Virus record (IMG/VR): IMGVR_UViG_3300046660_000716
Coordinates: 1-64,000 of that record
Strand: one strand, 5' to 3'
DNA: 64,000 bases
Origin: a virus
Shown: positions 2,834 to 18,128 of the stretch, piece by piece
How positions within the stretch are numbered: position 1 is the first letter of the stretch
Layout of the letters: the number at the start of each line of letters is the position of its first letter
The notes under the pieces: generated by a model
Told to the model about the DNA's origin: nothing
The model's input: only the letters and a program-made list of their open reading frames with translations
The model's database searches: none
Program-made: the position numbers and the translations under genes

Positions 2834-2865
2834 GTTTGTCCTCAAGGTTAAACGGATTGCAGGCC

Positions 2866-2880
2866 CGTATATCATTTGGT
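2866..2880 (-). promoter_or_regulatory. Candidate promoter motif for the leftward operon
   Basis: On the minus strand this reads CCAAATGATATACGGG, an extended -10-like TGATATA box about 35 bases before the guanylate-kinase-like gene. On the plus strand the same bases give TATCAT (2870-2875), a hexamer that recurs upstream of several other genes here. No convincing -35 box is present. Confidence 0.4.
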
Positions 2881-2927
2881 TGCGACGGCCTTCCGCCCAC
2901 AAAACTAGGGCGGTTTGGACTGAAGCA

Positions 2928-3005: not shown

Positions 3006-4415
3006 GTGAGAATCACACTGAACCCGCTCGACGAGGGCTTCGACCCGTTCTTCACCGTAACGGACCACTCGCCGGTGATCGAGAAGACCGGCAAGTTCTC
3101 GGACGGCGGCGTGTTCTCCGAGCGCATCTTCGGCCGCATCCCGTCGAGCGGCCGCGAGTACGCGTGCGACTGCCCGTCCACGCAGAAGCCCATCGAGGGC
3201 CGGTTCTACGAGGGCACGATCTGCCCCAAGTGCAACGCCGCCGTCACCTGCCGCGACACGGTGTTTTCCAAGAAGGGCTGGGTCGACCTGGGCGCGCACC
3301 AGATCATCAGCCCGCTCTTCTTCCAGTACTTCGCCAAGGTGGTCGGTCCGACCCAGCTGGCCAAGATCGTCCACCAGAAGCGCGTCCTGACCATGGACGG
3401 CATCATCAAGGTGGCGGACGACGCCGGACCGTTCGACAACATGGGCCTCGCCGAGTTCTCCCGGCGCTGGCCCGAGGTCCTGGACCACTTCGAGGCCAAG
3501 AAGAAGTCCGATCCGCGCGTCGCCGAGTTCGCCCGCATCATCCGCGAGAACCCGACGATGGTGATGACCTCCAAGATCCTGGTTTTCAACCACATCCTGC
3601 GCCCGGCGCTGGTCGTGGAGAAGCAGATGATCTTCGACGAGGTCAACAACCTGTACAACCTGCTGATCAGCAACGCGTCGGTGCTGAACGACTACACGCC
3701 GGAGGAGGCCACGGACGGCAACGTCAACGCGGTCCTGTGGCGCATCCAGGAGCGGGCGAACGAGATCTTCGACCACGTCCTGTTCGTGCTGTCCGGCAAG
3801 GGCGGCTACCTGCGCGGCCAGCTGCTCGGCAACCGCATCAACTTCTGCGGCCGCATGGTCATCACCCCGCTCGGCCCCGGCCACGAGCAGGACGAGGTCG
3901 AGGTCCCGTACCTGGCCTTCCTGGAGATGTACCGCTTCCAGCTGACCAACCTGACCGCCCGCATGAAGGGCATCTCGCTAGCGAAGGCCAACGACCTGTG
4001 GCACGAGGCCCAGACCAAGTTCGACCCGTCGATGTACGCGGCGATGCTCCAGCTGATCAAGCGCGGCCCGGACGGCCACGGCCTGTACGCGCTGCTGAAT
4101 CGCAACCCGACCATCGCGTTCGGCTCCATCCTGCGCGTGCGCATCACCGGCATCAAGCGCGACCCGCTCGACTACACGATGAGCGTGCACAACGGCATCC
4201 TGAAGCTGATCGGCGGCGACTACGACGGCGACGTCTGCGCCCTGATCCCGTTCCTGGACCGCGACTTCGCCGACGCCTTCCGCGTCTTCGACCCGCGCCT
4301 CATGATGATCTCGCGCGACGGCCCACGCGTCAACCGCGCCATGCTCATGGACAAGGACCACGTCCTGGGCCTGAGCGTGCTGACCGAGGACGATCCGCGC
4401 CTCATGGTCGCATAG
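3006..4415 (+). CDS. Phage RNA polymerase beta'-like subunit (N-terminal/catalytic half)
   Basis: This 469-residue protein carries the front part of a multisubunit RNA polymerase beta' chain. A zinc-ribbon pattern CxC (54, 56) and CxxC (73, 76) sits in GTICPKCNAAVT, as in bacterial beta'. The conserved GKGGYLRGQLLGNRINFCGR block (about 263-282) matches the region leading to the active site. NRNP at 364 is followed by GGDYDGD with D404, D406 and D408, the equivalent of the Mg-binding NADFDGD loop. The protein stops soon after the catalytic loop, so the trigger loop and C-terminal half must be a separate gene outside the window, as in phages with split polymerase subunits. The start is GTG, chosen for AAGGGAG 8 bases upstream. 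It would act in phage-specific transcription. Confidence 0.88.
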   Translation: MRITLNPLDEGFDPFFTVTDHSPVIEKTGKFSDGGVFSERIFGRIPSSGREYACDCPSTQKPIEGRFYEGTICPKCNAAVTCRDTVFSKKGWVDLGAHQIISPLFFQYFAKVVGPTQLAKIVHQKRVLTMDGIIKVADDAGPFDNMGLAEFSRRWPEVLDHFEAKKKSDPRVAEFARIIRENPTMVMTSKILVFNHILRPALVVEKQMIFDEVNNLYNLLISNASVLNDYTPEEATDGNVNAVLWRIQERANEIFDHVLFVLSGKGGYLRGQLLGNRINFCGRMVITPLGPGHEQDEVEVPYLAFLEMYRFQLTNLTARMKGISLAKANDLWHEAQTKFDPSMYAAMLQLIKRGPDGHGLYALLNRNPTIAFGSILRVRITGIKRDPLDYTMSVHNGILKLIGGDYDGDVCALIPFLDRDFADAFRVFDPRLMMISRDGPRVNRAMLMDKDHVLGLSVLTEDDPRLMVA

Positions 4416-4767: not shown

Positions 4768-4797
4768 GGCGAAGCCCCTCCGGGGCTTCGCCATTTT
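4768..4797 (+). terminator. Intrinsic terminator
   Basis: A perfect 11-base-pair stem, GGCGAAGCCCC / GGGGCTTCGCC with a TCC loop, is followed by ATTTTC. It closes the transcription unit that begins at the beta'-like gene. Confidence 0.8.
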
Positions 4798-5656: not shown

Positions 5657-6187
5657 ATGCTCAGAAAACTCATCGCTGCCGCTCTGTCCGCAGCCCTGCT
5701 GGCCGCGCTACCCGCGCTGGCCCAAACCCTGACGTCCGAGGGCTCACCGGCCGCGCGCAACTGCCTGGTTGCCGCCGCCTGGATCGAGGCCCGCGGCCGA
5801 CCCGCCATAGAGGCGGAGGCCGTCATGCACGTCATCGTGAACCGCTCGAACCATCCGGCGTACGGAGGCACGGCCTGCGACGTGGTGCTGGCCAAGGGTC
5901 AGTTCCAGATGGTGCCCGCCGTCCGGTCAGCGCTCAGGCGCGTCCGCGACGGAACCGCGCCCGTGACGGTCATGTCCAAGAAACACGACGACCCGGAGAT
6001 CGCCCGGCTGATCGAGTGCGCGGAGCGCGTGCTCGAAGGCGGCGACGACCCGACGCACGGCGCCACGCACTTCTACTCGCCCAAGCTCCGCATAGCGATG
6101 AACCTGGACCGCGTCCCCTACTGGGCGCGCAGGATGCCGCTGACGGCCTCGCTCGGCGAGTTCCGCTTCCACCGCCTCCGGTCCTAG
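5657..6187 (+). CDS. Exported SleB-type cell wall hydrolase
   Basis: The 176-residue product has an N-terminal signal peptide (MLRKLIAAALSAALLAALPALA, cleavage near residue 22). It then has the signature of the SleB / Hydrolase_2 family: IEARG with Glu44, VxxVIVNRSNHPAYG around 58-70, Cys74-VV, QF at 82-83, and a later GATHFYSP. Members cleave peptidoglycan, classically as lytic enzymes in spore germination and as phage or prophage wall hydrolases. It is separate from the main lysis cassette at 16-18 kb and has its own export signal, so it could help wall remodelling during lysis. It is preceded by a 173-base gap and an AGAGGA ribosome binding site. Confidence 0.85.
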   Translation: MLRKLIAAALSAALLAALPALAQTLTSEGSPAARNCLVAAAWIEARGRPAIEAEAVMHVIVNRSNHPAYGGTACDVVLAKGQFQMVPAVRSALRRVRDGTAPVTVMSKKHDDPEIARLIECAERVLEGGDDPTHGATHFYSPKLRIAMNLDRVPYWARRMPLTASLGEFRFHRLRS

Positions 6188-6290: not shown

Positions 6291-7220
6291 ATGACGATGC
6301 CAACAGCAACGACCGACAACTTCGTCGGTCTCTTCGGTCGCCAGGCCCCGATCGGCCTCGACATACCGCAGTGGGTCACCGTGTACGTGCCGCACGGCGC
6401 GTGGCAGAAGCAGGAGGTCGGCGGGACCGTCGGCGGTTTCATGGCGGTCCTGGTGGAGGGCCTGGCGGTGATCGGGCTCACCGGGGTCACGATCGTCATC
6501 GACGAGAACGTGAAGACCTGGTCCATGCACAGCCTGAACGACCTCGGGGCCACGCTCAAGGGCGCGGTCGCGCCGAGCCGGCCCTACTTCCGGATCATCG
6601 TCTCCAACGTGGCGGCGGCCCTCGAGAACGACGGGGCGACCATGAGCGGCCCTCTGCTCGTCGTCACCAACGGCGAGGCGGTCGCCGTGCCGGAGGCGGT
6701 GCTGAGGGGCGGCGACGCGATCTGCGTGGACGTCGCCACCACGATGGTCGCCAAGACCACGCACCCGTACGAGCTGTCGAAGGACGCCATTCAGGAGCTG
6801 GGCGTCAAGGACCTGTACAAGCAGCCGCAGTGGGCCGAGAAGTGGTCGCGGACCGTCCTGCGCTCGACCACCGCCCTGATGGCGCTGAACGTCCTGGCCA
6901 AGCCCGAGCGCTTCGGCATGAACCGCTTCTTCTTCGCCTGCGACTTCCTCGACGAGACGATCATGCAGGCCGTCAACGCGCGGGGTGTTCGCCCTCGCTT
7001 CCGCGACGAAAAGAAGACGCGAACCAAGAAAACGAAAGACGCAGCTGCTGTTCAGCCCGATCCACCGACCGACGGCCCCGCTCCCGCGTCGGCCGCTGGC
7101 ATGGGCGAGGCGATCCTGGAGGCGGCATCCGTCGTCTTCGGAACCGACCACGTGCGCCAGACGGCCGACTTCCTCCAGATGTTCGCCGACCAGATCAACA
7201 CGCAACCGCAATTCGCATAA
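6291..7220 (+). CDS. Hypothetical protein, first gene of E1/JAMM operon (309 aa)
   Basis: Begins MTMPTATTDNFVGLFG after an AAGGAG site. The N-terminal 180 residues are rich in alternating Val/Ile strands and Gly (for example VTIVIDENVKTW), suggesting an alpha/beta or beta-rich fold. A basic Lys-rich segment (about 240-255, KKTRTKKTKD) precedes a helical C-terminus. No known domain is recognised. Tight spacing to the next gene (9 bases) and shared direction place it in the operon with the ThiF-like and JAMM proteins, so a role in that system is plausible but unproven. Confidence 0.7.
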   Translation: MTMPTATTDNFVGLFGRQAPIGLDIPQWVTVYVPHGAWQKQEVGGTVGGFMAVLVEGLAVIGLTGVTIVIDENVKTWSMHSLNDLGATLKGAVAPSRPYFRIIVSNVAAALENDGATMSGPLLVVTNGEAVAVPEAVLRGGDAICVDVATTMVAKTTHPYELSKDAIQELGVKDLYKQPQWAEKWSRTVLRSTTALMALNVLAKPERFGMNRFFFACDFLDETIMQAVNARGVRPRFRDEKKTRTKKTKDAAAVQPDPPTDGPAPASAAGMGEAILEAASVVFGTDHVRQTADFLQMFADQINTQPQFA

Positions 7221-7229
7221 GGAACCACC

Positions 7230-9155
7230 ATGGAAGAGACCCAAGCACCGGCAGCACCGCCTCGACGCGCCAGCAGCCCGGTAGTAGCTCCGGTCAGGGA
7301 CCGGCCCGCCGGATCGAGCACGCTGCGCTCCCTGCGCGAGCTCTCGCCGGAGGCGGTGGCGGAGCTGAATAAGGCGCCGTCCATCCCGACGTACATGTAC
7401 GTCGACGTCTCCACCTGGTACGTGGCAGACCAGAAGGGCATCCCGATCAAGGCCATTGAGGTCAGCAGTGTCCCGACCGGCTACGCGCGCACCATGTACA
7501 TCTCCTGGCTGAGCGAGCAGCGCTCGTTCTGCTGGCGGGGTATGCGATATGTGTACTCATGCCACCCGGACGAGCACCCTGGTGAGGACGACGTAATCGT
7601 CGACCGCAGCTACCAGTTCCCCCATCTGAGCGACAAAGATCCGAGCGCCATCGACATCCCGATCCTCCACGCCCTGCACTACCTGCTGAGCGGCCATTCG
7701 ACCCAGGTCACGGTGGACGCCTACGCGCTGGGCGTGGACCCGCTCGCCGCGATCCGCGACTGGTCGGCCGACAAGGTCGCTGCGTTCGGCCAGTGGGCCG
7801 TGTACATCCGCGGCTCCGTGACCGCCACGACCTTCACCGTGCTGGAGATGGCGTCGCTCTACGAGTCCGAGACCGAGGGCATCCTGCGCGGACGCCTCGA
7901 CTGGGTGCGCTTCCCGGACGGCGACGGCTGCGGCAACGTCCTCGCGGTCAGCGAGCTCAGCTACGTCGGCGAGGACTTCGAGGACGAGCTTGGCGTGCCG
8001 CACTGGCGGGTCGGCGACGAGTGGACGGCCAACGTCATGGACCGCGACGGCATACTGCACGCCCACGTGGACGTCAAGAACTTCGGCGTTGTGCCACGAT
8101 CCCGCGCCCACAAGCTCATGGAGCTCGCGGCCAAGATGAGCGGTGCGGTCGTCTCCAAGCTGAATCTGGCCTCGGGCGGCAACACGTTCGCGGACATCGA
8201 GGGCTTCTCGATGGAATCGCTCGACCAGATGATCGCGTTCATCGGCAGCGACTCGGTGGACAGCCTCGTCACCTGGGAGCAGCTGAAGCGAGGCCACACG
8301 CACATCAACCAGGTGCCGATCAGCACAACGATCGGCTACGAGGTGAGCCACTGGGTGGACGCAGCGCTGAGCAAGCTCGTGTGGGCCGGCGCCGCAGAGA
8401 TCACGTCCGCCCTGCGCACAGGCCGCGAGATCAGCATGGACACAATCGACATAAGCGACTTCGCGAAGATCGAGTTCCCGCAGAACGACCTGATCGAGTC
8501 CATCAAGATGCTCAAGGGCGGCACCGTGCGCGTGATCCTGAAGGACGTGGTCTACCCGACCCAGGTCCTGCGCCGCGGCATCACCTACATCGAGGACGAC
8601 GCGGGTTCGGTGCTGAGCGACATGTCCATCAGGGCGTTCGACCTGGACTTCCGCGGCAACCTGACCAAGTTCCCGAACGCCACGGCGTACGCCGACGAGG
8701 CGTGCAAGCACATCGCGCGTCACACCAACATCTCCAGCGGCGGTCGCGTGTGCCTGGGCAACATCAACCAGGGTATGACCGAGGCCGAGATCGCCGCGCG
8801 CGGCGGCTTCGGCATGCCGTCCGTGGGGGACTTCCTGCAGATGCTCCGCCAGTGCAACCTGGACAGCGCGTACCACGGGGGCCGCGAGTTCGTCCTGGCC
8901 GACCCGGAATCGGTCGAGCAGGGCCACTACTCGAACGCGCCGAAGTGGCGCATCCCCGGCCTGCGCCGCATCGAGGTCGACGACTTCGCGGAGCTGCGCA
9001 AGCAGTTCGCAGCCCAGGCCGCCGCTGAGGCGGAGGAAGACGGCGAGGAGGCCGACCCGATCGCCGAGGGCGCCGCCGATGCCGAACCGGCGACGGAGGC
9101 CGAGCCGGAAACTACCGAAGAACCAACAGAGGAGGCCGCAGATGCCGATAACTAG
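7230..9155 (+). CDS. Large hypothetical protein of E1/JAMM operon (641 aa)
   Basis: Begins MEETQAPAAPPRRASS; the first 40 residues look disordered and Pro/Arg-rich. The central 530 residues are a mixed alpha/beta globular region with several Cys (for example near SFCWRGMRYVYSCHP). The last 55 residues are a strongly acidic Glu/Ala/Asp tail. An E2-like conjugating domain was looked for because of the neighbours, but no clear E2 fold signature was seen. The gene overlaps the ThiF-like gene by 14 bases, implying coupled translation. Function unknown. Confidence 0.7.
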   Translation: MEETQAPAAPPRRASSPVVAPVRDRPAGSSTLRSLRELSPEAVAELNKAPSIPTYMYVDVSTWYVADQKGIPIKAIEVSSVPTGYARTMYISWLSEQRSFCWRGMRYVYSCHPDEHPGEDDVIVDRSYQFPHLSDKDPSAIDIPILHALHYLLSGHSTQVTVDAYALGVDPLAAIRDWSADKVAAFGQWAVYIRGSVTATTFTVLEMASLYESETEGILRGRLDWVRFPDGDGCGNVLAVSELSYVGEDFEDELGVPHWRVGDEWTANVMDRDGILHAHVDVKNFGVVPRSRAHKLMELAAKMSGAVVSKLNLASGGNTFADIEGFSMESLDQMIAFIGSDSVDSLVTWEQLKRGHTHINQVPISTTIGYEVSHWVDAALSKLVWAGAAEITSALRTGREISMDTIDISDFAKIEFPQNDLIESIKMLKGGTVRVILKDVVYPTQVLRRGITYIEDDAGSVLSDMSIRAFDLDFRGNLTKFPNATAYADEACKHIARHTNISSGGRVCLGNINQGMTEAEIAARGGFGMPSVGDFLQMLRQCNLDSAYHGGREFVLADPESVEQGHYSNAPKWRIPGLRRIEVDDFAELRKQFAAQAAAEAEEDGEEADPIAEGAADAEPATEAEPETTEEPTEEAADADN

Positions 9156-9813
9156 AGCAGAGGTGGGTCGCCTCGAAATGCGACCCATCATGGCCAACAC
9201 CATGCGACGCCGCCTCAACCTGCTGGGAGTGGGCGGCGTCGGCAGCAACTTCATGCGGCTGATGTGCCACCACGAGGACGAGGTCATGGTCCGCATCTTC
9301 GACATGGACACGGTCGAGCTGCACAACCTGAACCGCGCGAGCATGTTCACGATCGACGACGCGTTCAGCAACGCGAGCAAGGTGAGCGCGATCGCTGCGT
9401 CGTGCAAGCGGCTCGCCAGCGAGCTGTCCGTTACCCCGAGCAACGCCGAGATCGACAGGGACACGGTGCTGCCCAAGGGCTTGGTGATCGACGCGCGGGA
9501 CACGCTGAACCCGACCAAGATCCCGGCGGCGACCTGGCTGAAGCTGGCCTACGACGGCGGCAGCGAGATGAGCTTCACCTGGCTGCCGCACATCGTCTCG
9601 AAACACGTCGTCGACCTGAGCAACGGTCGCAGCAACGCGTACGCCGTCGTGCCGAGCTTCTACGTGCCGGCGGCGCTGCTGTCCATCCTGGCCATGCGGT
9701 TCATGCAGTTCGAGAACTTCCTGGAGATCACCGAGATGCGCGCCGGCACCTTCCACATGAACCTTGACGAGATGGTCGACTCCGTCTCATACGAATGGGA
9801 GCCACCGCAATGA
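9142..9813 (+). CDS. ThiF/E1-like adenylating enzyme
   Basis: The 223-residue product is a compact member of the ThiF/MoeB/E1 superfamily. The nucleotide-binding glycine motif GVGGVGS is at 29-35. DMDTVELHNLNR (54-65) carries the conserved Asp and the Asn/Arg pair, and K80 and VIDARD (115-120) follow as expected. Such enzymes adenylate the C-terminus of a ubiquitin-like or sulfur-carrier protein. The only cysteines (42, 88) lie in the N-terminal half and no CxxC zinc site is present, so a standard E1 thioester cysteine seems missing and the enzyme may only adenylate. The start at 9142 is supported by GAGG and removes a basic stretch encoded inside the previous gene. It overlaps both neighbours. 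Confidence 0.85.
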   Translation: MPITRAEVGRLEMRPIMANTMRRRLNLLGVGGVGSNFMRLMCHHEDEVMVRIFDMDTVELHNLNRASMFTIDDAFSNASKVSAIAASCKRLASELSVTPSNAEIDRDTVLPKGLVIDARDTLNPTKIPAATWLKLAYDGGSEMSFTWLPHIVSKHVVDLSNGRSNAYAVVPSFYVPAALLSILAMRFMQFENFLEITEMRAGTFHMNLDEMVDSVSYEWEPPQ

Positions 9814-10712
9814 GCGACACGCGCATCGAAATCGACCCAAGCACGGCGCGAGTCAGGTCCGTGACGTACCAGGACGTGACTGGCGAGATGATCACCGTCA
9901 CCGAAGGAGCGGTGGCGCCGGCCTTCGAGAACATCGCGTCGGCGCATCGCCACCACGCGCATTCCGATGTCGCCGACATGGCGACCCAGACCATGGCTGA
10001 GATCGAAGCGGCCATCGGCGAGCCGCCGATCATCTCGATCCAAGCTCCGGTGACCGAGGACGTGATGGTGCCGGAGGAGGACACGGCCGAAGTGCAGACC
10101 GTTCTACGCTTCCTCGAGGACGACTCGATCGACATGAAGCGCACCGTGGGCAAGATCCGCTCCCTGCCGCCGGAGCGCGTCCGCGACGCGCTCTCCGTGG
10201 CCTACGCCGACATCATCGGCGGCCGAGCCGGTCCTGCCCCGAGCATCGCCCGCGCTCTGCACATGGTGGTCTCGCCGTTCCTGACCGCGCTGCCGGGCCT
10301 GGTCCGCGACCACGGACCGCAGAACGAGCAGCTGCGCCGCCTCACCGCCGAGATCCTGGTGATCCTCAAGGGCGTGTACGTGGCCGAGTCCAAGTCGCGC
10401 AATAACACGCTGATCATCCGCCCCCTGCGCGGATCCGTCACGGGCCGCGACCTGACGCCGATGCAGCTGCTGCAGATGCAGCTCAAGATGTCGGCGACCC
10501 TGGAGCGCGAGCTGGCGGAGCTCGCCAGCAACGGCGGCTTCTGGAGCGTATTCATGAACGCCCACCAGTACCGCCAGATGGCGCTGCACTCCCCGGTCAA
10601 CCTGATCAACACCATCGCGGAGATGGGAACTTACCTCAAGGCTGTCTCGTTCAAGACCAAATTGGACAATCAACAGCTTAAGATTCTTCAGGCGTTCTTC
10701 CGTACTGCCTGA
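9810..10712 (+). CDS. Hypothetical protein of E1/JAMM operon (300 aa)
   Basis: The start ATG overlaps the ThiF-like stop codon (ATGA), so the two proteins are probably made together. The product begins MSDTRIEIDPSTARVR. An N-terminal beta-like region with a His-rich patch (SAHRHHAHSD, about 45-54) is followed by a long helical domain (about 100-300) with QLLQMQLKMSATLERELAEL. No family recognised. It could be a partner or substrate of the adenylating enzyme; this is inferred from position only. Confidence 0.7.
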   Translation: MSDTRIEIDPSTARVRSVTYQDVTGEMITVTEGAVAPAFENIASAHRHHAHSDVADMATQTMAEIEAAIGEPPIISIQAPVTEDVMVPEEDTAEVQTVLRFLEDDSIDMKRTVGKIRSLPPERVRDALSVAYADIIGGRAGPAPSIARALHMVVSPFLTALPGLVRDHGPQNEQLRRLTAEILVILKGVYVAESKSRNNTLIIRPLRGSVTGRDLTPMQLLQMQLKMSATLERELAELASNGGFWSVFMNAHQYRQMALHSPVNLINTIAEMGTYLKAVSFKTKLDNQQLKILQAFFRTA

Positions 10713-10746
10713 AGCACCAGCAACAATCCCACTCACTACGATTGAC

Positions 10747-10764
10747 GGGGCCGTGCACGGCCCC
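10747..10764 (+). terminator. Palindromic hairpin GGGGCCGTGCACGGCCCC
   Basis: A perfect 18-base palindrome in the 69-base gap between two operon genes. There is no T-run; it may be an internal processing or attenuation site. Confidence 0.45.
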
Positions 10765-10781
10765 GCTTGAAAGGAATCACA

Positions 10782-11522
10782 ATGGCAACAGCTACTCCAC
10801 GCGGCGCATCCTCCATCCCTGACCTGGAATTCCTGAAGGCGTACAACGACCCGAAGGCATCCAACGCCCAGATCCTGGAGGCCCTGCAAACCGACTGGAC
10901 TGCCGTGGGCGTCAAGCTGCGCTCCGCACGTCTGCAGCTGCACACCCTGGTGACCCGCACCGGCGGCGCCAAGGGTACCGCCGAAGCGAAGGACAAGGAC
11001 GACCTGGCGCTGGAAGCCCAGATCTTCAAGAAGCACGAGATCGTGCAGCCGCAGCCGAACGGCCCCTACATCTCGCTGCAAGAGCGCATCGACGCGGGCA
11101 AGATCAAGGTCAACTCCAAGCTGGAAGTGACCGAGCTGGAATCCAAGGGCGAGACCGCCAAGCCGGCCGCGAAGGCCGACGCCCCGGCCAAGGGCAAAGC
11201 TGACGCCAAGGCAGACAAGGCGAAGCCCGCCGACAAGGCCAAGGACTCGGGCAAGGCCGCCGCGGAAGAGCCAGCCAAGCCGACCAAGACCAAGGTAGCC
11301 GCCGATCCGCGCGCCTTCGTGTTCCAGGCCAACATCTTCAGCACGAACTACGAGTTCGCCGGCGCGTCGAAGAACGACGCCACCAACGCCCTCTTCACCA
11401 AGCTGCAAGAGCTGAACGTTAGCAAGGTCCAGATCTCCGACAACAACGGCCGCAGCTGCGGCTTCGCCGACATCGTGCACGGCGGCAAGTACAAGTTCAG
11501 CAAGCAGCTGACCGCGGCGTAA
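10782..11522 (+). CDS. Two-domain protein with Ala/Lys-rich linker (246 aa)
   Basis: Begins MATATPRGASSIPDLEF after AAGGAA; an upstream in-frame TTG is less likely. Residues about 1-115 form one domain. A histone H1-like linker rich in Lys, Ala, Asp and Pro follows (about 120-170). A C-terminal domain of about 70 residues has a beta-hairpin, helix, beta pattern (FVFQANIFSTNYEF, then NALFTKLQEL, then GGKYKF). That order is compatible with a small beta-grasp fold, which would suit a ubiquitin-like substrate for the neighbouring ThiF and JAMM proteins, but it ends QLTAA rather than Gly-Gly. This reading is speculative. Confidence 0.65.
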   Translation: MATATPRGASSIPDLEFLKAYNDPKASNAQILEALQTDWTAVGVKLRSARLQLHTLVTRTGGAKGTAEAKDKDDLALEAQIFKKHEIVQPQPNGPYISLQERIDAGKIKVNSKLEVTELESKGETAKPAAKADAPAKGKADAKADKAKPADKAKDSGKAAAEEPAKPTKTKVAADPRAFVFQANIFSTNYEFAGASKNDATNALFTKLQELNVSKVQISDNNGRSCGFADIVHGGKYKFSKQLTAA

Positions 11523-11539
11523 AGGCGCGCCGGAAGGTA

Positions 11540-11563
11540 GCGATGGACCCGAGGGTCCATCGC
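11540..11563 (+). terminator. Hairpin GCGATGGACC/GGTCCATCGC
   Basis: Perfect 10-base-pair stem with a CGAG loop between the linker protein gene and the JAMM gene. There is no T-run. Possibly a partial terminator within the operon. Confidence 0.5.
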
Positions 11564-11592
11564 GTCTAGACGAACACAAAGAAGGGTAAAGA

Positions 11593-12483
11593 ATGCGCAA
11601 CGATCACCTCATCAGCACGGGCCTGCAGCTTCACAGCAAGGCGTTCGTCGTGATGCCGCAGGACATCTGCCGCACCATGGCCGCGGCTCTGTCCGCCATC
11701 CCCGACCCGAGCCTCGAGTACGGCATGTACCTGAAGGGCGACTGGGATCCGAAGACCTGCACCGTCATCGTTCGCCCCGGCGAATTCTATGTACCGGAGC
11801 AGGTCGTGAGCGGCGCCTCCATCCAGTTCACCGAGGAGCCGCCCGGCCCGGAGTGGAACGTGGTCATCCACCGTCACCCGCCGGGCGTGAACCGCTTCTC
11901 CAGCACCGACGAGAACTCGATCAACGAGGAGTTCCTCGCCTCGGTCCTGTTCATGCCGCCGTGGGGCTTCCCCGACGCCGTGGTCAACATCCCGCTGGCG
12001 CCAGGCTCCAAGTTCCAGACCCGCGCCGTTGTCAATCCCGAGGGCACGCTGCTGGACATGCCAGAGGAGCTGACCGCCAAGATCAAGGCCAACGTCAAGC
12101 GCTACACGGCTCCGAAGGTCGAGAAGATGGGCGCCGGCCACGTCACCACCCTGGGACCGGACGAGCGCGCGTCCCTCCAGCGCGAGCTCGGCGAGAGCGG
12201 CCTGGATTTCGACAATGGTGGCTACGGACGTCCGCTGCCCGGCGTGGGCACCGGTAAGATCGGTCAGGCCCGCCAGGTGGCCGGCGGCGGCACCATCCGC
12301 GCGCTGGGCTACGAGCCTGACAAGGTCCGCCCGCGCATCCAGCCGATCCGCGGCGGCAAGGCCAAGCCGGGTCCGCTCAACGGCGACGCCGCCGGACTGG
12401 TGGCCGCAGGCTTCCACGCCTCCGACATCGAGGACATCGCCGACGCGCAGCGCGAGAGCCAGATGATCCGCGTGCAGGGCTAA
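11593..12483 (+). CDS. JAMM/JAB-domain metalloprotease
   Basis: The N-terminal 150 residues contain a complete JAMM (MPN+) zinc site: Glu42 in LEYGMYLKGDW, then H93-R-H95-P with six residues to S103 and D106 (HRHPPGVNRFSSTD). This exactly fits the consensus E..HxHPx6SxxD. Such enzymes remove or process ubiquitin-like proteins by cleaving isopeptide or peptide bonds. Residues about 170-296 form a Gly/Arg-rich, low-complexity tail with a short C-terminal helix of possible UBA-like character (DAAGLVAAGFHASDIEDI). The protein sits two genes after the ThiF-like enzyme in the same operon, the pairing seen in bacterial ubiquitin-like systems. All catalytic residues are intact. Confidence 0.87.
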   Translation: MRNDHLISTGLQLHSKAFVVMPQDICRTMAAALSAIPDPSLEYGMYLKGDWDPKTCTVIVRPGEFYVPEQVVSGASIQFTEEPPGPEWNVVIHRHPPGVNRFSSTDENSINEEFLASVLFMPPWGFPDAVVNIPLAPGSKFQTRAVVNPEGTLLDMPEELTAKIKANVKRYTAPKVEKMGAGHVTTLGPDERASLQRELGESGLDFDNGGYGRPLPGVGTGKIGQARQVAGGGTIRALGYEPDKVRPRIQPIRGGKAKPGPLNGDAAGLVAAGFHASDIEDIADAQRESQMIRVQG

Positions 12484-12504
12484 CCACAACTACAAGGGAA
12501 TACA

Positions 12505-13245
12505 GTGGACAAAATCAAGAAGGTCAAGCTCTTCATGGGCTTGGGGGTGGCCGCGCTGCTGATACTCATCGGCCCGCTGCTTTGGATGCTGCTGCAGGCC
12601 GGGCTCGCTCTGAGCCTGGTCGGCGCGCTCGGCGTCGCCATGGCCGGGGCCATCCGACTGCTGCCGCTGGCCGGGCAGAAGCTGGAGAATAAGATCCTCG
12701 AACTGCGCAAGGCCGAGGCTCGCAAGAACCCGATCGAGCAGAAGCAGAACGAACTCCTGCGCCGCCGCAAGCAGATCGAGATGGCCAAGAAGGCGCTCGT
12801 CGGCGCCGGCTCCCAGATCGAGGGCATGGAGGACATGATCCGCGAGCAGGCCAGGAAGGACCCGGACTGCGACATGTCGCAGGAGCGCCGCGGCCTCGAG
12901 AAGATGAAGGCGTTCTACCAGGGCAACCTGGAGAAGCTGCGCTACCGCGAGGGTAAGATCGCCGAGTTCGCCAAGAACATCGAGCGCGACATCTTCAAGT
13001 GGGAATTCACCCAGAAGGGCAAGGCCACCATCGAGGGACTGAACGTTAACGACCAGGAATCCGTGCTGAACGAGATCCTGACCAGCGAGGCCAACCGCGC
13101 CGTCAACGACGAATTCAACCAGATCTGCGCCGAGATGGACATGGAAGTCAGCACCATGAACGCCCAAGGCGTGATCACTTACGAGGGCGGCCTGACGCTG
13201 GACATGACCGGCTACAAGGTGCCCGAAATGGCGAAGGTGAACTGA
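12505..13245 (+). CDS. Membrane-anchored coiled-coil protein (246 aa)
   Basis: Starts with GTG after an AAGGGA site. Two membrane helices follow each other at about residues 9-31 and 32-53. A long charged coiled-coil (about 56-165, for example NELLRRRKQIEMAKKAL) comes next, then a small C-terminal domain. It was probably placed in the inner membrane with the coiled coil in the cytoplasm. It follows the JAMM gene by 21 bases and so is likely made with it. No family recognised. Confidence 0.75.
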   Translation: MDKIKKVKLFMGLGVAALLILIGPLLWMLLQAGLALSLVGALGVAMAGAIRLLPLAGQKLENKILELRKAEARKNPIEQKQNELLRRRKQIEMAKKALVGAGSQIEGMEDMIREQARKDPDCDMSQERRGLEKMKAFYQGNLEKLRYREGKIAEFAKNIERDIFKWEFTQKGKATIEGLNVNDQESVLNEILTSEANRAVNDEFNQICAEMDMEVSTMNAQGVITYEGGLTLDMTGYKVPEMAKVN

Positions 13246-13246
13246 C

Positions 13247-13396
13247 ATGAACTACTGGAAGATCCTCAAGATCGCCGCGCCCATCCTGGTCGTGATCATC
13301 ACCGCCGTCGTCTGCGCCTTGGGTCAGCCCTCGTCGCCGGCCGACGCCCCGGCACCGGCTACCCAGCCGGCCGCCGGCCCCAACTACAACCTGTGA
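13247..13396 (+). CDS. Small single-span membrane protein (49 aa)
   Basis: The reading frame ATG to TGA gives MNYWKILKIAAPILVVII, followed by the rest of one hydrophobic helix (about residues 8-25) and a Pro/Ala-rich tail ending GPNYNL. The Cys at 23 does not sit in a good lipobox, so this is a membrane protein rather than a lipoprotein. It starts one base after the previous stop and so is part of the operon. Function unknown. Confidence 0.65.
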   Translation: MNYWKILKIAAPILVVIITAVVCALGQPSSPADAPAPATQPAAGPNYNL

Positions 13397-13419
13397 CACC
13401 AACGATGAAGGACAGCACC

Positions 13420-14409
13420 ATGAACGTGATGCAACCGAAGTACATCAAGGGCCTGCTGGCCGCCATGCTGGTCATGATGGTTTCCGCCTTCGCCCACGCC
13501 GCGCCGGAAGAGGGCGGCCCGGCCGCCTCCTGCGGCGAGGACGCGCTGGAGATCGCCACCGGCGCCAAGGGCAAGGGCTACTCCCTGCTGTACGCGAACC
13601 TGGAGAAGGTCTGCGGCCAGGTCGTCCCGATGTGCGAGCACCCGACCAACGGCGGCCTGGACAACGTGAACGCGCTGTCCGTCAAGGAAGCCGACCTGGG
13701 CTTCGCCCAGTTGGACACCGCGAGCAGCATGAAGAGCGACGAGAACATCGCCGCCCTGGTCTCCGTGGCCACGCTGAACACGAACTTCATGCACACCGTC
13801 GTGTCGAGCTCCGGCTTCAACGTGCCCGGTCCGAAGAAGTGGGGCGGCATGAAGGACGGCGACCCGATCCAGGTGCAGCTGCGCTCCTTCTCCGACCTGA
13901 AGGGCCGCACGATCGGCGCCGTCGGCTCGGCCGACCTGCTGATCCGCCAGCTGAACAAGCAGCTGGGCTACAACATGACCATCCGCGGCTTCAAGAGCGA
14001 CGCCGACGCGATCCAGGCCATGAAGAACCCGGCCAACATCGTGGCCTTCGTGACGGTCAGCGGATGGCCGCACGGCGCCCTGAAGAACCTGACGCCGGAC
14101 AGCGGCCTGACCCTGGCGAGCTTCGACGCGGTCGTGGCCGCCCCGTACATCGTCAAGCCGCTGAACTACCGCAGCATGGCCGTGTACAACAGCAACACGC
14201 TGGGCGTGCCCAACCTGCTGCTGGCCCGCCAGTTCACGGGCGAGAAGGCCGCCCAGGTCAGCAAGCTGCGCGCCTGCATGGCCTCCAGCCTGACCAAGCT
14301 CCAGCAGGGCAAGTTCGAGCCGGGCTGGAACGAGATGAAGAGCCTGGACGGCGCCAACGACTGGCCGAAGTTCGTGCCGTCGTCGGCCGCCGCGCCGCGC
14401 AAGAAGTAA
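13420..14409 (+). CDS. Exported TAXI-type (TRAP transporter) solute-binding protein
   Basis: The 329-residue product has a signal peptide (about residues 1-27, hydrophobic core LLAAMLVMMVSAFAHA). The mature part matches TAXI family periplasmic binding proteins: IATGAKGKGYSLLYANLEKV, a TNGGLDNVNAL segment equivalent to the family's TGGSVEN, EADLGFAQLD, and SFSDLKGRTIGAVG. TAXI proteins bind small solutes for tripartite ATP-independent transporters; no transporter membrane gene is nearby. The ATG at 13420 is chosen for AAGGA and because the signal peptide follows. A periplasmic solute-binding protein in a phage operon is unusual. It could be a captured host gene that was reused, perhaps to bind a periplasmic ligand. 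Confidence 0.8.
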   Translation: MNVMQPKYIKGLLAAMLVMMVSAFAHAAPEEGGPAASCGEDALEIATGAKGKGYSLLYANLEKVCGQVVPMCEHPTNGGLDNVNALSVKEADLGFAQLDTASSMKSDENIAALVSVATLNTNFMHTVVSSSGFNVPGPKKWGGMKDGDPIQVQLRSFSDLKGRTIGAVGSADLLIRQLNKQLGYNMTIRGFKSDADAIQAMKNPANIVAFVTVSGWPHGALKNLTPDSGLTLASFDAVVAAPYIVKPLNYRSMAVYNSNTLGVPNLLLARQFTGEKAAQVSKLRACMASSLTKLQQGKFEPGWNEMKSLDGANDWPKFVPSSAAAPRKK

Positions 14410-14717: not shown

Positions 14718-16025
14718 ATGGCATTCAAAGACGTCACAATCTCCCGGCCCGTGTCCGTAGTGGCACCGGTCATCAGCAGCCTCGCGGGAGCCCTGCGCCG
14801 GTACGTCATGAGCGTGCTGCCGACCGAGTACGTGAGGGACTACTTCATCGACACGGAGCTTCCGATCGTGCGCTTCCAGCAGCGCCGCAAGTTCCGGCCG
14901 ATGATGCACTCGCAGCTGGACATTCGCAAGCTGCCGCTCCTGAGCATCAAGGTGGACTCGACGGCCGACCCATCGCCGTTCGCCACCGGCACGACGTTCT
15001 GGACCAGCACCCGCTTCCTGGACGACCCGACCCGGCTGGCCCGCCTGATCGTCGACGACGACAACCTGCGCTACGTCGGATACGAGACCGAGCGCATGGT
15101 CATGCGGTTCCAGGTGTCGTTCACCGTGGAGACTGACCTCAAGGCCGCCGAGCTGATGATGTACCTGCGCCGCAGCCTGCCGATCGACCAGAAGGTGTAC
15201 CTTAACGACGTGGACGTCGCCACCGAGGTGCCGATGGACGTGCTGCGCCCGATCTGGACCGACATGGGGCTGGGCGACGGCACGGACCCCGACGACGTGG
15301 CGGAATTCCGCGAGTACCTGACGGCCTCGACCGCCGGCCTGGTGGAGCAGGTGACGAGCTCCTCGACGGGCCGCCTCGTCTTCGCCTTCCACTACCGGGC
15401 GAACCCGATCGTCAACATCACCTCGGTCCCTTCCATGACGCCCATCCGGGACGGCAACGTCGTGACGAAGGCGCAGGTCGACATCCCGTTCGAGATGGAC
15501 GTCATGGTGCCGGTGGCGTACGCGCTGCGCCAGGAGCAGTCCCTGGGGTCGGTCACCCCCATAAACCCCACGCCGTTCGACATCGGCGACGAGGGCGCGG
15601 GGGCGTACTACAGCGCCCAGCACCGGACGCGCCCGCCGCAGACCGTGGCGGACAACCTGACGCTCGTCTACTTCACCGCGGTCGTGACGGCCGACGTGGA
15701 TCCCGCCCGCCCGGGCGCCCCCGACGTGACGGACCTGTCCACGTCCGTGGACGGCAGGATGCGGGCGTACATCCACGCCCTCCTGTCGGGCGGAGCACAG
15801 GACAAGGTCGAGGCCAAGCTCTGGCTGGACGGCGACGAGATCGGGGCCGGGTGGGAGTTCGACCCGGCCACGTGGGCGCTGACCATCGACAAGGTGGCGT
15901 TCCAGCCGCGCCAGAAGTACCACTTTGGACTGTACACCGACCTGTCCCGCCTCGACGAGCTCGCGCCGGTCGTCCGCAGGCCGCAGGCCCCGAGCCCCAC
16001 GTTCAAGCGCATCAACACCGTGTAG
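14718..16025 (+). CDS. Putative virion structural protein (435 aa)
   Basis: Begins MAFKDVTISRPVSVVAP and has no signal or membrane segment. Composition (beta-rich, many Val/Thr/Asp, domains separated by Gly/Pro turns) is typical of baseplate or tail structural proteins, and it stands at the edge of the lysis and tail fibre modules. The C-terminal part (about 360-420, DKVEAKLWLDGDEIGAGWEF) looks like an immunoglobulin-like beta domain. No specific family recognised; the structural assignment is inferred from context. Confidence 0.6.
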   Translation: MAFKDVTISRPVSVVAPVISSLAGALRRYVMSVLPTEYVRDYFIDTELPIVRFQQRRKFRPMMHSQLDIRKLPLLSIKVDSTADPSPFATGTTFWTSTRFLDDPTRLARLIVDDDNLRYVGYETERMVMRFQVSFTVETDLKAAELMMYLRRSLPIDQKVYLNDVDVATEVPMDVLRPIWTDMGLGDGTDPDDVAEFREYLTASTAGLVEQVTSSSTGRLVFAFHYRANPIVNITSVPSMTPIRDGNVVTKAQVDIPFEMDVMVPVAYALRQEQSLGSVTPINPTPFDIGDEGAGAYYSAQHRTRPPQTVADNLTLVYFTAVVTADVDPARPGAPDVTDLSTSVDGRMRAYIHALLSGGAQDKVEAKLWLDGDEIGAGWEFDPATWALTIDKVAFQPRQKYHFGLYTDLSRLDELAPVVRRPQAPSPTFKRINTV

Positions 16026-16062: not shown

Positions 16063-16653
16063 TCAGGCGTTCACTGCTACGGCTGCTTGGGCGCCGTCGG
16101 GAACTTCTGCTCCCACGCTGCCTTTTGCGTCCTGATCCAGTTCTGGAGGCCGATGATCTGCTCCTCCATCAGGCTGGCCTTCTTGGCCTCCAGGGCGTGC
16201 TGCGTCTCCACCTCGCTCAGCTTGGGGCTGTCCTTGAGGCGCTCCGACTTCAGGCTGGCCGGCGGGTCCATCAGCTTTTGGGGCGTCTCCGGCCAGGGGG
16301 GTGTTGCTGTTGGCGGCGTTCCACACGCGCACAAAGCCAGCGCCAATAACGCCGCACTTGTCGTCATCCTGCTTGGTGACATAGATCGGTACCTCCTTGA
16401 TGATGGCGTCCGCCTTCTTGGTCACTGTGACGACCCTGTCGACGTACTCGGTTATGACCTTCACGTTTGCCTCGGCCTGCTGGACCTTGACCTCCGCGAC
16501 CTTCTCCACAACGGTCGCCTTCTCCTTGTCCCACCGCGCCTGGACGCGGCCCGAGCCGTTGGCGTCGCCCTTGAGGTAGGCGCCGCCGACCGCGAAGAGC
16601 AGAAGCAGCCCGATGCCGATGGACTTCCAGTTTTCTAGTAGGAACAGTGGCAT
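16063..16653 (-). CDS. Inner-membrane spanin (Rz-like, i-spanin)
   Basis: The product begins MPLFLLENWKSIGIGLLLLF, giving one N-terminal membrane helix (about 10-28). A charged helical stretch follows (about 35-90) with coiled-coil character (EKATVVEKVAEVKVQQAEA), as in Rz proteins that span the periplasm. The C-terminal half is Pro/Gly/Gln-rich because the sequence also encodes the o-spanin in another frame. It is the last gene of the lysis cassette, with GGAG before the ATG. It should join with the o-spanin to fuse inner and outer membranes at lysis. Confidence 0.8.
   Translation of the reverse strand: MPLFLLENWKSIGIGLLLLFAVGGAYLKGDANGSGRVQARWDKEKATVVEKVAEVKVQQAEANVKVITEYVDRVVTVTKKADAIIKEVPIYVTKQDDDKCGVIGAGFVRVWNAANSNTPLAGDAPKADGPAGQPEVGAPQGQPQAERGGDAARPGGQEGQPDGGADHRPPELDQDAKGSVGAEVPDGAQAAVAVNA
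16077..16382 (-). CDS. Outer-membrane spanin lipoprotein (Rz1-like), embedded
   Basis: This gene lies wholly inside the i-spanin gene in a different frame, the lambda Rz/Rz1 arrangement. The 101-residue precursor MSPSRMTTSAALLALALCAC carries a lipoprotein signal with LCAC as the lipobox (modified Cys about 20). A Pro-rich segment (GTPPTATPPWPETP) follows, then a helical C-terminus (about 45-95). A very good site, AAGGAGG, lies 9 bases before the chosen ATG at 16382. The mature protein would be anchored in the outer membrane and bind the i-spanin. Confidence 0.83.
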   Translation of the reverse strand: MSPSRMTTSAALLALALCACGTPPTATPPWPETPQKLMDPPASLKSERLKDSPKLSEVETQHALEAKKASLMEEQIIGLQNWIRTQKAAWEQKFPTAPKQP

Positions 16654-17169: not shown

Positions 17170-18000
17170 CTACGCCACGGCCTTTCGGTACGCGTCGCAG
17201 GTCCCGGCCGGCAGGAGGACGATGCCGCGCTTGTAGGCATCGCTGAAGTGGTCCAGGCCATTGGACCCGCCGTTGACGATCCGGCGCGCGTGGCGCAGGT
17301 CGCCCTCGAGCAGCGCGTGCTTGGCCTCGACCACGTGGTCGCTGATGAACGCTGCCAGAATCAGGCCGGCGTACTTGGCGTCGCACGCCAGCGCCGGGTT
17401 GGCGGCCAGGTCCGCGCCGACCACCTTGCCGTACTTGATGTAGTTGTCGCGGCCGGTCAGCTGGACGTAGCCGCCGCCCGGGAAGCTCGCGCCGTCGCCG
17501 AACGCGCCGCCCCGGTTGCCGAGGTCGCGGCGGTTGTCGTACAGGTCGTATGGCTTGCCGCCCGGCGAGGTGTTGTACTTGCTGATGCCTTCCTTGATCG
17601 GCTGGAAGCCCTCGGTCTCGGCGCGGATCGTCGCCAGCGCCATCAGGATGACGGGGGCGTCGGTCAGCTTGAAGTATGCGAGGCCGGCCATCACGCCCGG
17701 CAGGTTCTTCTCGATGTTCGCGCGCGGCGTGACCGGGAACATCTTGGCCACGAGGTCGACGGTGAACAGGGAGGCGTCGTTCGCCACCAGGCCGGCGGAC
17801 AGGCCGAGCTCCGACTGCGTGCGCGGGCCGGCGACGCCGTCCGCGACGAGGCCGTGGGACTTCTGGAACGCCGTGACGGCGGCCGCCGTGCCCGGGCCGA
17901 ACTGGCCGTCCGGCAGGCCGCAGGGGAAGCCGGCGGCGGCCAGCGCGCGCTGCAGGGTCGCTACTTCGTCGCCGGTGCTGCCCAGGGTGAGTTGTGTCAT
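17170..18000 (-). CDS. Endolysin: peptidoglycan-binding domain plus GH19-like catalytic domain
   Basis: The 276-residue protein starts at ATG 18000 behind GGAGG. Residues about 3-62 form a PG_binding_1 domain (GSTGDEVATLQRALAAAGF, then GPGTAAAVTAFQKSHGL). Residues about 100-276 resemble glycoside hydrolase family 19 / chitinase-like endolysins: ATIRAETEGFQPIKEG with candidate catalytic Glu, a Tyr/Asp-rich stretch, then GGGYVQLTGRDNYIKYG, which matches the conserved GRGxxQLTGRxNY. No signal peptide is present, so export would need the holin. It is first in the lysis cassette, divergent from the structural gene at 18129. Confidence 0.88.
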   Translation of the reverse strand: MTQLTLGSTGDEVATLQRALAAAGFPCGLPDGQFGPGTAAAVTAFQKSHGLVADGVAGPRTQSELGLSAGLVANDASLFTVDLVAKMFPVTPRANIEKNLPGVMAGLAYFKLTDAPVILMALATIRAETEGFQPIKEGISKYNTSPGGKPYDLYDNRRDLGNRGGAFGDGASFPGGGYVQLTGRDNYIKYGKVVGADLAANPALACDAKYAGLILAAFISDHVVEAKHALLEGDLRHARRIVNGGSNGLDHFSDAYKRGIVLLPAGTCDAYRKAVA

Positions 18001-18128
18001 GTCGATGAACCTCCATAAAGTTGTCAATCTGATGTTGCAGCAGGGCCGGCCCTCCGCCCCGATCGGCCTTCGTGGCCACAATCGCGGGACGCCAAACAAC
18101 CGAATAGAAAACTCGCCTGGACAACAAA

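What the first reader, a model, noticed from the sequence alone, without database searches (positions are those of the whole stretch)
6291..14409. Phage operon with ThiF/E1-like enzyme, intact JAMM protease, unknown partners and an exported TAXI protein
Seen: the ThiF-like product at 9142-9813 has all adenylation motifs, and the JAMM product at 11593-12483 has a full E42/H93/H95/S103/D106 site. They are embedded with four uncharacterised proteins (309, 641, 300, 246 residues), two membrane proteins and a secreted solute-binding protein. Known: E1-like and JAMM proteins pair in bacterial ubiquitin-like conjugation systems (for example CBASS Cap2/Cap3 and the ThiF/JAB cassettes of plasmids). Inferred: the phage has its own small protein-tagging system, perhaps for virion proteins or against host defence. 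The partner proteins fit none of the families I know, so the operon may be an undescribed system.
Basis: partly seen in the sequence, partly recalled or inferred. Interest (0 to 1): 0.85.

Follow-up and report, generated by a model that had tools for sequence, protein, structure and literature searches.

The report
Jumbo phage's own ubiquitin-like tagging operon
A giant bacterial virus carries a compact six-gene operon that looks like a complete home-made ubiquitin-type tagging kit (activating enzyme, conjugating enzyme, small tag and tag-removing enzyme), a kind of machinery so far known in bacteria mainly as a weapon against viruses.

Summary
The ORFs and both active sites are as reported. 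The window lies in a 259-kb jumbo-phage record. Searches found one relative, a 64-kb phage contig (L015). It keeps p309, p641, ThiF, p300, p246a and JAMM in the same order at 20-54% identity. The two downstream genes (membrane protein p246b and TAXI protein) are absent there but occur as a pair in Achromobacter phage Motura, so they are a separate module.

Two of the 'unknown' partners fit the missing parts. The C-terminal domain of p246a is predicted (pLDDT 73-78) as a ubiquitin beta-grasp; its Foldseek hits are mainly ubiquitin-fold domains, bacterial Ubl complexes among them. p641 carries an E2-type active-site loop, HTNISSGGRVCLGNI (H498, C508), conserved in the relative, aligned to the catalytic Cys of PRTRC E2s, and unique among the phage's six-frame ORFs. 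The E2 fold itself was not shown: the p641 model failed.

Best reading: a phage-encoded E1-E2-Ubl-JAMM system with unusual chemistry (no conserved E1 cysteine; Ubl ends in Ala). Composition is closest to plasmid PRTRC cassettes, but defining features fail, so it is a new variant. It probably acts late, on a virion or host protein; the target is unknown, as are the roles of p309 and p300.

The parts
6291..7220 (+). p309: first gene of the conserved unit, no known family
   Evidence: Ortholog in L015 at 30% identity in the same position; no Pfam/NCBIfam/PHROG/PADLOC match
7230..9155 (+). p641: putative E2 conjugating enzyme; E2-like region roughly aa 420-580, motif H498-T-N...V-C508-L-G-N
   Evidence: Ortholog 34%, E2 region 47% identical, motif invariant; weak Pfam UQ_con hit to the ortholog placing its Cys at the E2 active-site position (position read from the coordinates); hhalign to PRTRC_B P=0.004, Cys to Cys; motif unique among the phage's six-frame ORFs
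8487..8969 (+). E2-like region of p641 used as profile A7
9142..9813 (+). ThiF/E1-like adenylating enzyme, no conserved cysteine between the two orthologs
   Evidence: PF00899 E=1.7e-12; ortholog 47-50%; profile hits UBA6 (E=3.4e-4) and Citrobacter BubCD (1.8e-3) among solved structures
9810..10712 (+). p300: unknown partner; start overlaps the ThiF stop by 4 bp
   Evidence: Syntenic, very divergent counterpart in L015 (20%)
10782..11522 (+). p246a: conserved N-terminal helical segment + disordered linker + C-terminal ubiquitin-like domain (aa 179-242) ending in -QLTAA
   Evidence: AF2 model m6c8e0c8cc827, domain pLDDT 73-78 with beta-beta-alpha-beta-(3-10)-beta order; Foldseek top hits mainly ubiquitin-fold domains; ortholog 37-44%
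11593..12483 (+). JAMM/JAB metallopeptidase (E42, H93, H95, S103, D106); aa 1-169 conserved, long variable tail
   Evidence: Ortholog 54% over aa 1-169 with every catalytic residue kept
12505..13245 (+). p246b: membrane/coiled-coil protein, NOT part of the conserved unit
   Evidence: Absent from L015; homolog next to the TAXI homolog in phage Motura
13393..14409 (+). Exported TAXI-like solute-binding protein, NOT part of the conserved unit
   Evidence: TIGR02122 E=1.1e-8 (below cut-off) and phrog_6856; Motura homolog
3006..4415 (+). Flanking core gene: multisubunit RNA polymerase beta' fragment
   Evidence: 33% identical to phiR1-37 g274
14718..16025 (+). Flanking core gene: homolog of phiR1-37 g272, annotated structural protein
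   Evidence: phmmer 9.6e-17, annotation

Best explanation
The six genes 6291-12483 encode a phage ubiquitin-like conjugation/deconjugation system. [quoted passage not shown] The activated Ubl would pass to Cys508 of p641 (E2), apparently without a dedicated E1 catalytic cysteine, and from there to a target. JAMM would remove the tag (or trim it), making the mark reversible. p309 and p300 are accessory or target-recruiting proteins. Because the operon sits between the phage RNA polymerase gene and virion-protein genes, the most likely setting is late infection, tagging a virion or host protein. Shown: sequences, motifs, conserved order and invariant catalytic residues. Predicted: the Ubl fold. 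Inferred: E2 fold, enzymatic chain, reversibility, timing, target.
For: E1 family membership and intact adenylation motifs. JAMM catalytic pentad invariant in a divergent ortholog. p246a C-terminal domain predicted as a ubiquitin fold; Foldseek top hits include UBL, SUMO, ISG15 and bacterial Ubl-deubiquitinase (8tyx) and E1-E2-Ubl (8tyz) structures. p641 motif HTN-x7-C invariant; UQ_con is one of only two Pfam models reported for the ortholog segment (E=0.19 over 24,736 models), matching profile 65-121 and residues 192-253 with the Cys at residue 209. In a matrix against six PRTRC families the expected partners score best: E2 0.004, JAB 0.022, E1 3.6e-7; the off-diagonal cells for these three profiles are 0.02 or worse. 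The E2 motif occurs once in ~284,000 residues of six-frame ORFs of the phage and once in the relative, both times in the gene just before E1. Gene order and tight spacing/overlaps kept in a phage with 20-54% identical operon proteins. Ubl C-terminus is Ala in both phages; Cap2-linked CBASS substrates end in Gly or Ala (PMC10097602). Flanks match phiR1-37, which has only one small gene between rpoC and the structural gene.
Against: The p641 AF2 model is unusable (mean pLDDT 29), no relevant PDB sequence hit for the E2 or JAMM profiles, and Pfam finds nothing in the window's own E2 region. The alignment to PRTRC_B covers only 18 columns; against Prok-E2_A/B the E2 region scores P=0.27. The Ubl model comes from a two-sequence alignment, no Foldseek hit passes E<=0.001, and its sequence profile has no ubiquitin-like hit. 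The E1 lacks a conserved catalytic Cys. Only two genomes carry the system. No target known.
Confidence: 0.68

Rival explanations
1. The set is a sulfur-carrier/cofactor system (ThiF or MoeB with a ThiS-like carrier and a JAB peptidase, as in cysteine or siderophore operons), and the p641 motif is coincidental.
For: Best E1 model hits are ThiF/MoeB; the E1 lacks a catalytic Cys as in MoeB-type adenylation-only enzymes; JAB+E1+Ubl sets without E2 exist in sulfur operons (Iyer 2006, PMC1779556).
Against: No rhodanese, cysteine synthase, sulfurtransferase or cofactor gene was recognised among the operon proteins; the Ubl domain is fused to a long N-terminal region and does not end in Gly-Gly; a partner carries an invariant E2-type motif.
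Confidence: 0.12
2. A phage decoy or antagonist set: E1/E2/Ubl mimics that titrate or strip host conjugation systems (CBASS Cap2/Cap3, BIL, Bub) rather than performing a complete conjugation.
For: JAMM is intact; host conjugation systems of this type act against phages (PMC10097602); an E1 without catalytic Cys and an E2-like protein could act as traps (inference).
Against: All ATP-site residues and the E2-type Cys are invariant between diverged phages, unexpected for pure decoys; a Ubl of its own would not be needed.
Confidence: 0.1
3. A phage tail-assembly module like lambda gpK/gpI (JAB peptidase with a ubiquitin-like protein) that kept extra genes.
For: Phage context next to virion genes; Ubl + JAB pair (PMC1779556).
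Against: No NlpC/P60 domain on the JAMM protein, E1 and E2-like genes present, Ubl not followed by a glycine-rich linker and TAPI-C domain.
Confidence: 0.03
4. Unrelated genes that merely sit together.
For: Low identity of p300 (20%) and p309 (30%); only two genomes.
Against: Six genes in the same order at 20-54% identity in a divergent phage, while the neighbouring p246b/TAXI pair is not kept; three profiles match their PRTRC counterparts best.
Confidence: 0.05

Closest known systems
PRTRC cassettes of plasmids and integrative elements (type 6d of Iyer et al. 2006; PRTRC A, B, C, E, F, ThiF, ParB)
   Same: E1 (ThiF), separate E2-like protein with an N-[VI]-x2-G/x-G-x-[IV]-C-x-G type loop, separate JAB protein, a ubiquitin-like protein, extra partners; best profile matches E1-E1, E2-E2, JAB-JAB.
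   Different: Gene order (PRTRC: ParB-E-C-F-B-A-ThiF; phage: p309-E2-E1-p300-Ubl-JAMM). No PF14460 match, no ParB, E or F counterpart. Phage E2 has the HxN histidine that PRTRC E2s lack; phage Ubl is the C-terminal domain of a longer protein ending in Ala; phage E1 lacks the conserved PSCS cysteine; JAMM lacks the JAB-N region.
Type II CBASS Cap2/Cap3
   Same: E1/E2 plus JAB reversible conjugation; substrate C-terminus Gly or Ala (PMC10097602).
   Different: Cap2 is an E1-E2 fusion and its substrate is a CD-NTase; here E1 and E2 are separate proteins and no CD-NTase is recognised in the unit.
BIL (BilABCD)
   Same: Separate Ubl, E2, JAB and E1 genes; Foldseek hits include solved bacterial Ubl complexes.
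   Different: BilA has two Ubl domains, BilB uses a CEHH motif and BilD has a Cys domain (PMC11354881); none of these is seen here.
Eukaryotic E2 (UBC) enzymes
   Same: HPN-x7-C active-site loop (phage HTNISSGGRVC); weak UQ_con match.
   Different: No significant sequence similarity; fold not established.

Membership tests
PRTRC cassette | ThiF-family E1 gene | tested here: met
   hhalign to PRTRC ThiF P=3.6e-7, but only the adenylation core aligns
PRTRC cassette | Prok-E2_D (PF14460) E2 protein | tested here: not met
   No PF14460 hit in Pfam scans at E<=10 or in the relative's contig; only the catalytic loop aligns (P=0.004)
PRTRC cassette | Small standalone Ubl with C-terminal Gly | tested here: not met
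   p246a is 246 aa, Ubl at its C-terminus, ends TAA / TAAGA
PRTRC cassette | JAB protein with JAB-N region | tested here: not met
   Catalytic Glu at residue 42 leaves no room for the ~95-residue N-terminal region seen in PRTRC_A; JAB active sites align in register (P=0.022)
PRTRC cassette | ParB, E and F partner proteins | tested here: not met
   No NCBIfam PRTRC model hit; p309 and p300 do not match E or F
Type II CBASS | CD-NTase in the operon | tested here: not met
   No CD-NTase model among PADLOC, Pfam or NCBIfam hits for the operon proteins
Type II CBASS | E1-E2 fusion (Cap2) | tested here: not met
   E1 is a 223-aa protein separate from p641
BIL | E1 with catalytic Cys domain | tested here: not met
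   No conserved Cys and no Cys domain in 223/237-aa E1
BIL | E2 with CEHH motif | tested here: not met
   Motif is HTN-x7-C
E2 (UBC) superfamily | Catalytic Cys with upstream HxN | tested here: met
   H498/N500/C508 invariant in both phages
E2 (UBC) superfamily | UBC fold | tested here: inconclusive
   AF2 model of p641 failed, pLDDT 29
Ubiquitin-like modifiers | Beta-grasp fold | tested here: met
   Predicted fold of aa 179-242 at moderate confidence; top Foldseek hits are ubiquitin-fold domains, best E=1.7e-3
Ubiquitin-like modifiers | Conjugatable C-terminus (Gly-Gly, or Gly/Ala as in Cap2 substrates) | tested here: inconclusive
   Both orthologs end in Ala; the GG lies just before the predicted last strand
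JAMM/JAB metallopeptidases | E...HxHx7Sx2D metal site | tested here: met
   Invariant between the two orthologs
All of the above | Conjugation activity | not testable with these tools
   Needs biochemistry

The most novel reading that the evidence does not exclude
A complete virus-encoded E1-E2-Ubl-JAMM conjugation cascade of a family not described before, with a cysteine-less E1 handing the adenylated, Ala-terminated Ubl directly to the E2, used by the phage to mark virion or host proteins during infection.
Probability: 0.4. Interest if true: 0.88.

Novelty: new variant of a known kind. Interest (0 to 1): 0.72.

Why it matters
Bacterial ubiquitin-like conjugation is studied largely as anti-phage defence (CBASS Cap2/Cap3, BIL). 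A phage that encodes its own full set would show the chemistry used by the other side, give a compact system of about six proteins to reconstitute, and test whether an E1 without a catalytic cysteine can charge an E2 directly, which bears on how the ubiquitin cascade evolved.

Tried and rejected
Relatives: tblastn of ThiF, p641, p246a and JAMM in 50,697 phage records found none; the L015 ThiF gave only weak partial hits. The E2 region against plasmids found none. Eight IMG/VR scans found only one relative contig. The genome-contig scan returned distant ThiF relatives (at least two next to thiamine genes) and no match to the partner profiles. phiR1-37, AR9 and Motura lack matches to the E1, E2 and JAMM profiles. 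E2: p641 AF2 model unusable; PDB sequence hits to p641 were unrelated proteins; Prok-E2_A/B profiles gave no significance. p309 and p300: no match to any PRTRC partner or family library. Rejected: TAXI and p246b as system parts. Literature searches in the open-access library returned no description of a phage-encoded E1-E2-Ubl-JAMM set in the titles and abstract openings shown; subscription papers and preprints are not held, so absence is weak evidence.
Full report
What was checked. The window is the first 64 kb of a 259,338-bp virus record. The ORFs are at the stated coordinates; most starts are preceded by Shine-Dalgarno-like sequence, and third-position GC is 0.88-0.97, like the flanking core genes. 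The record is a jumbo phage with a multisubunit RNA polymerase. Its beta' fragment at 3006-4415 is closest to Yersinia phage phiR1-37 (33%), then Bacillus phages Goe21, BpSp and AR9/PBS1.

Is it one unit? One relative was found, IMG/VR contig IMGVR_UViG_3300043786_001845 (64 kb, L015), and the eight IMG/VR scans that were run returned no other. Its proteins are about 30-70% identical to those of this phage where they match. It keeps p309 (30%), p641 (34-35%), ThiF (47%), p300 (20%, by position and C-terminal pattern), p246a (37%) and JAMM (54% over aa 1-169), in that order and followed by the same p435 gene. Starts and stops overlap or nearly touch in both phages (p641/ThiF, ThiF/p300), which points to translational coupling. 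p246b and TAXI are not between JAMM and p435 in the relative. They occur as an adjacent pair in Achromobacter phage Motura, which has no match to the E1, E2 or JAMM profiles. So the system ends at JAMM.

Genomic setting. p435 and the 664-aa protein at 18129-20123 are homologous to phiR1-37 g272 and g271, annotated as structural proteins. In phiR1-37 only one small gene lies between rpoC and g272; here about 10 kb lies between them. A strong terminator-like hairpin follows the gene after rpoC (4768-4792), and the consensus scan lists none on the + strand from there to 17103. The insert also carries a cell-wall hydrolase (5657-6187, PF07486). This suggests late expression with lysis and virion genes, by inference only.

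E1. ThiF matches PF00899 (1.7e-12). The two-sequence profile hits human UBA6 (3.4e-4) and Citrobacter BubCD (1.8e-3) among solved structures. ATP-site motifs are invariant in both phages. No cysteine is conserved between the two, whereas PRTRC E1s carry a conserved PSCS cysteine.

Ubiquitin-like protein. AF2 on p246a gave low confidence overall (44), but aa 179-242 reached 73-78 with element order strand 179-185, strand 188-194, helix 197-210, strand 216-219, short helical turn, strand 236-241. Foldseek against the PDB returned mainly ubiquitin-fold domains (ubiquilin-type UBLs, SUMO, ISG15, CIDE-N, PB1, FERM), including a bacterial Ubl-deubiquitinase complex (8tyx) and an E1-E2-Ubl complex (8tyz). 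Best E was 1.7e-3, with no hit at or below 0.001. The viral library also gave CIDE-N and ubiquitin-like proteins first. The C-terminus is -QLTAA here and -QLTAAGA in the relative: no terminal Gly-Gly, but Ala in both. In type II CBASS the Cap2 substrate ends in conserved Gly or Ala, and Ala supports conjugation (PMC10097602).

E2. The strongest conserved block of p641 contains RHTNISSGGRVCLGNIN here and KHTNISSSGAVCLGDIN in the relative. This resembles the eukaryotic HPN...C loop and the PRTRC E2 loop (N-V-W-x-G-G-x-I-C-T-G-N), and a later block MLRQCNLDSAY lies where E2s have LLxxPNxxDP (the eukaryotic comparisons are from memory). Three tests: Pfam UQ_con is one of two models reported for the relative's segment (E=0.19 for 24,736 models), with the Cys at the expected place; hhalign to PRTRC_B gives P=0.004 over 18 columns, Cys to Cys, and this is the best of six PRTRC families for that profile; three motif patterns each match once in the phage's six-frame ORFs and once in the relative, both times in this gene. 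None of these alone is decisive, and the motif was noticed before it was counted. The AF2 model of p641 failed, so the fold is not shown.

JAMM. E42, H93, H95, S103 and D106 are invariant. The family is divergent: Prok-JAB E=0.019, no PDB sequence hit. It aligns in register with the PRTRC JAB active site (P=0.022).

Mechanism. Best supported: ATP-dependent activation of p246a by ThiF, transfer to C508 of p641, attachment to an unknown target, reversal by JAMM. Whether E1 hands the adenylate directly to E2 is inferred from the missing E1 cysteine. Roles of p309 and p300 are unknown.

Comparison. The content resembles PRTRC cassettes (type 6d in Iyer et al. 2006, PMC1779556), but PF14460, standalone Gly-terminal Ubl, JAB-N, ParB/E/F and gene order all fail. 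It is not CBASS (no CD-NTase recognised, no E1-E2 fusion), nor BIL (no E1 Cys domain, no CEHH). I therefore call it a new variant of bacterial ubiquitin-like conjugation systems, phage-borne. The main weakness is that everything rests on two genomes.

Noticed in passing
L002 (phage Motura) 11019-12852; window 12505-14409: A coiled-coil/membrane protein and a TAXI-like exported solute-binding protein occur as an adjacent pair in two otherwise dissimilar jumbo phages; in Motura they sit beside genes annotated homospermidine synthase and glutathionylspermidine synthase. A periplasmic protein encoded by a phage is unusual.
   Followed up: partly
L015 11156-12088: In the relative, the RNA polymerase beta' gene is interrupted after about residue 370 (window numbering) by an ORF that reads like an HNH homing endonuclease; AR9 carries an annotated HNH endonuclease within the same gene, apparently at another position.
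   Followed up: no
window 16063-16653 and 16077-16382, - strand: Looks like a spanin pair with the small lipoprotein (Rz1-like) embedded in another frame of the Rz-like gene; from sequence only.
   Followed up: no
window 5657-6187 (+) and 17170-18099 (-): Two cell-wall-active proteins flank the operon: a Hydrolase_2 protein with an apparent signal peptide and a peptidoglycan-binding endolysin-like protein.
   Followed up: partly
window 1418-2926, - strand: Guanylate-kinase-like domain (PF00625, 6.6e-6) in a 502-aa protein with a long C-terminal extension.
   Followed up: no
window 4768-4792: Strong hairpin with T-rich tails on both strands after the rpoC-proximal gene, a likely bidirectional terminator delimiting the inserted 10-kb block.
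   Followed up: no
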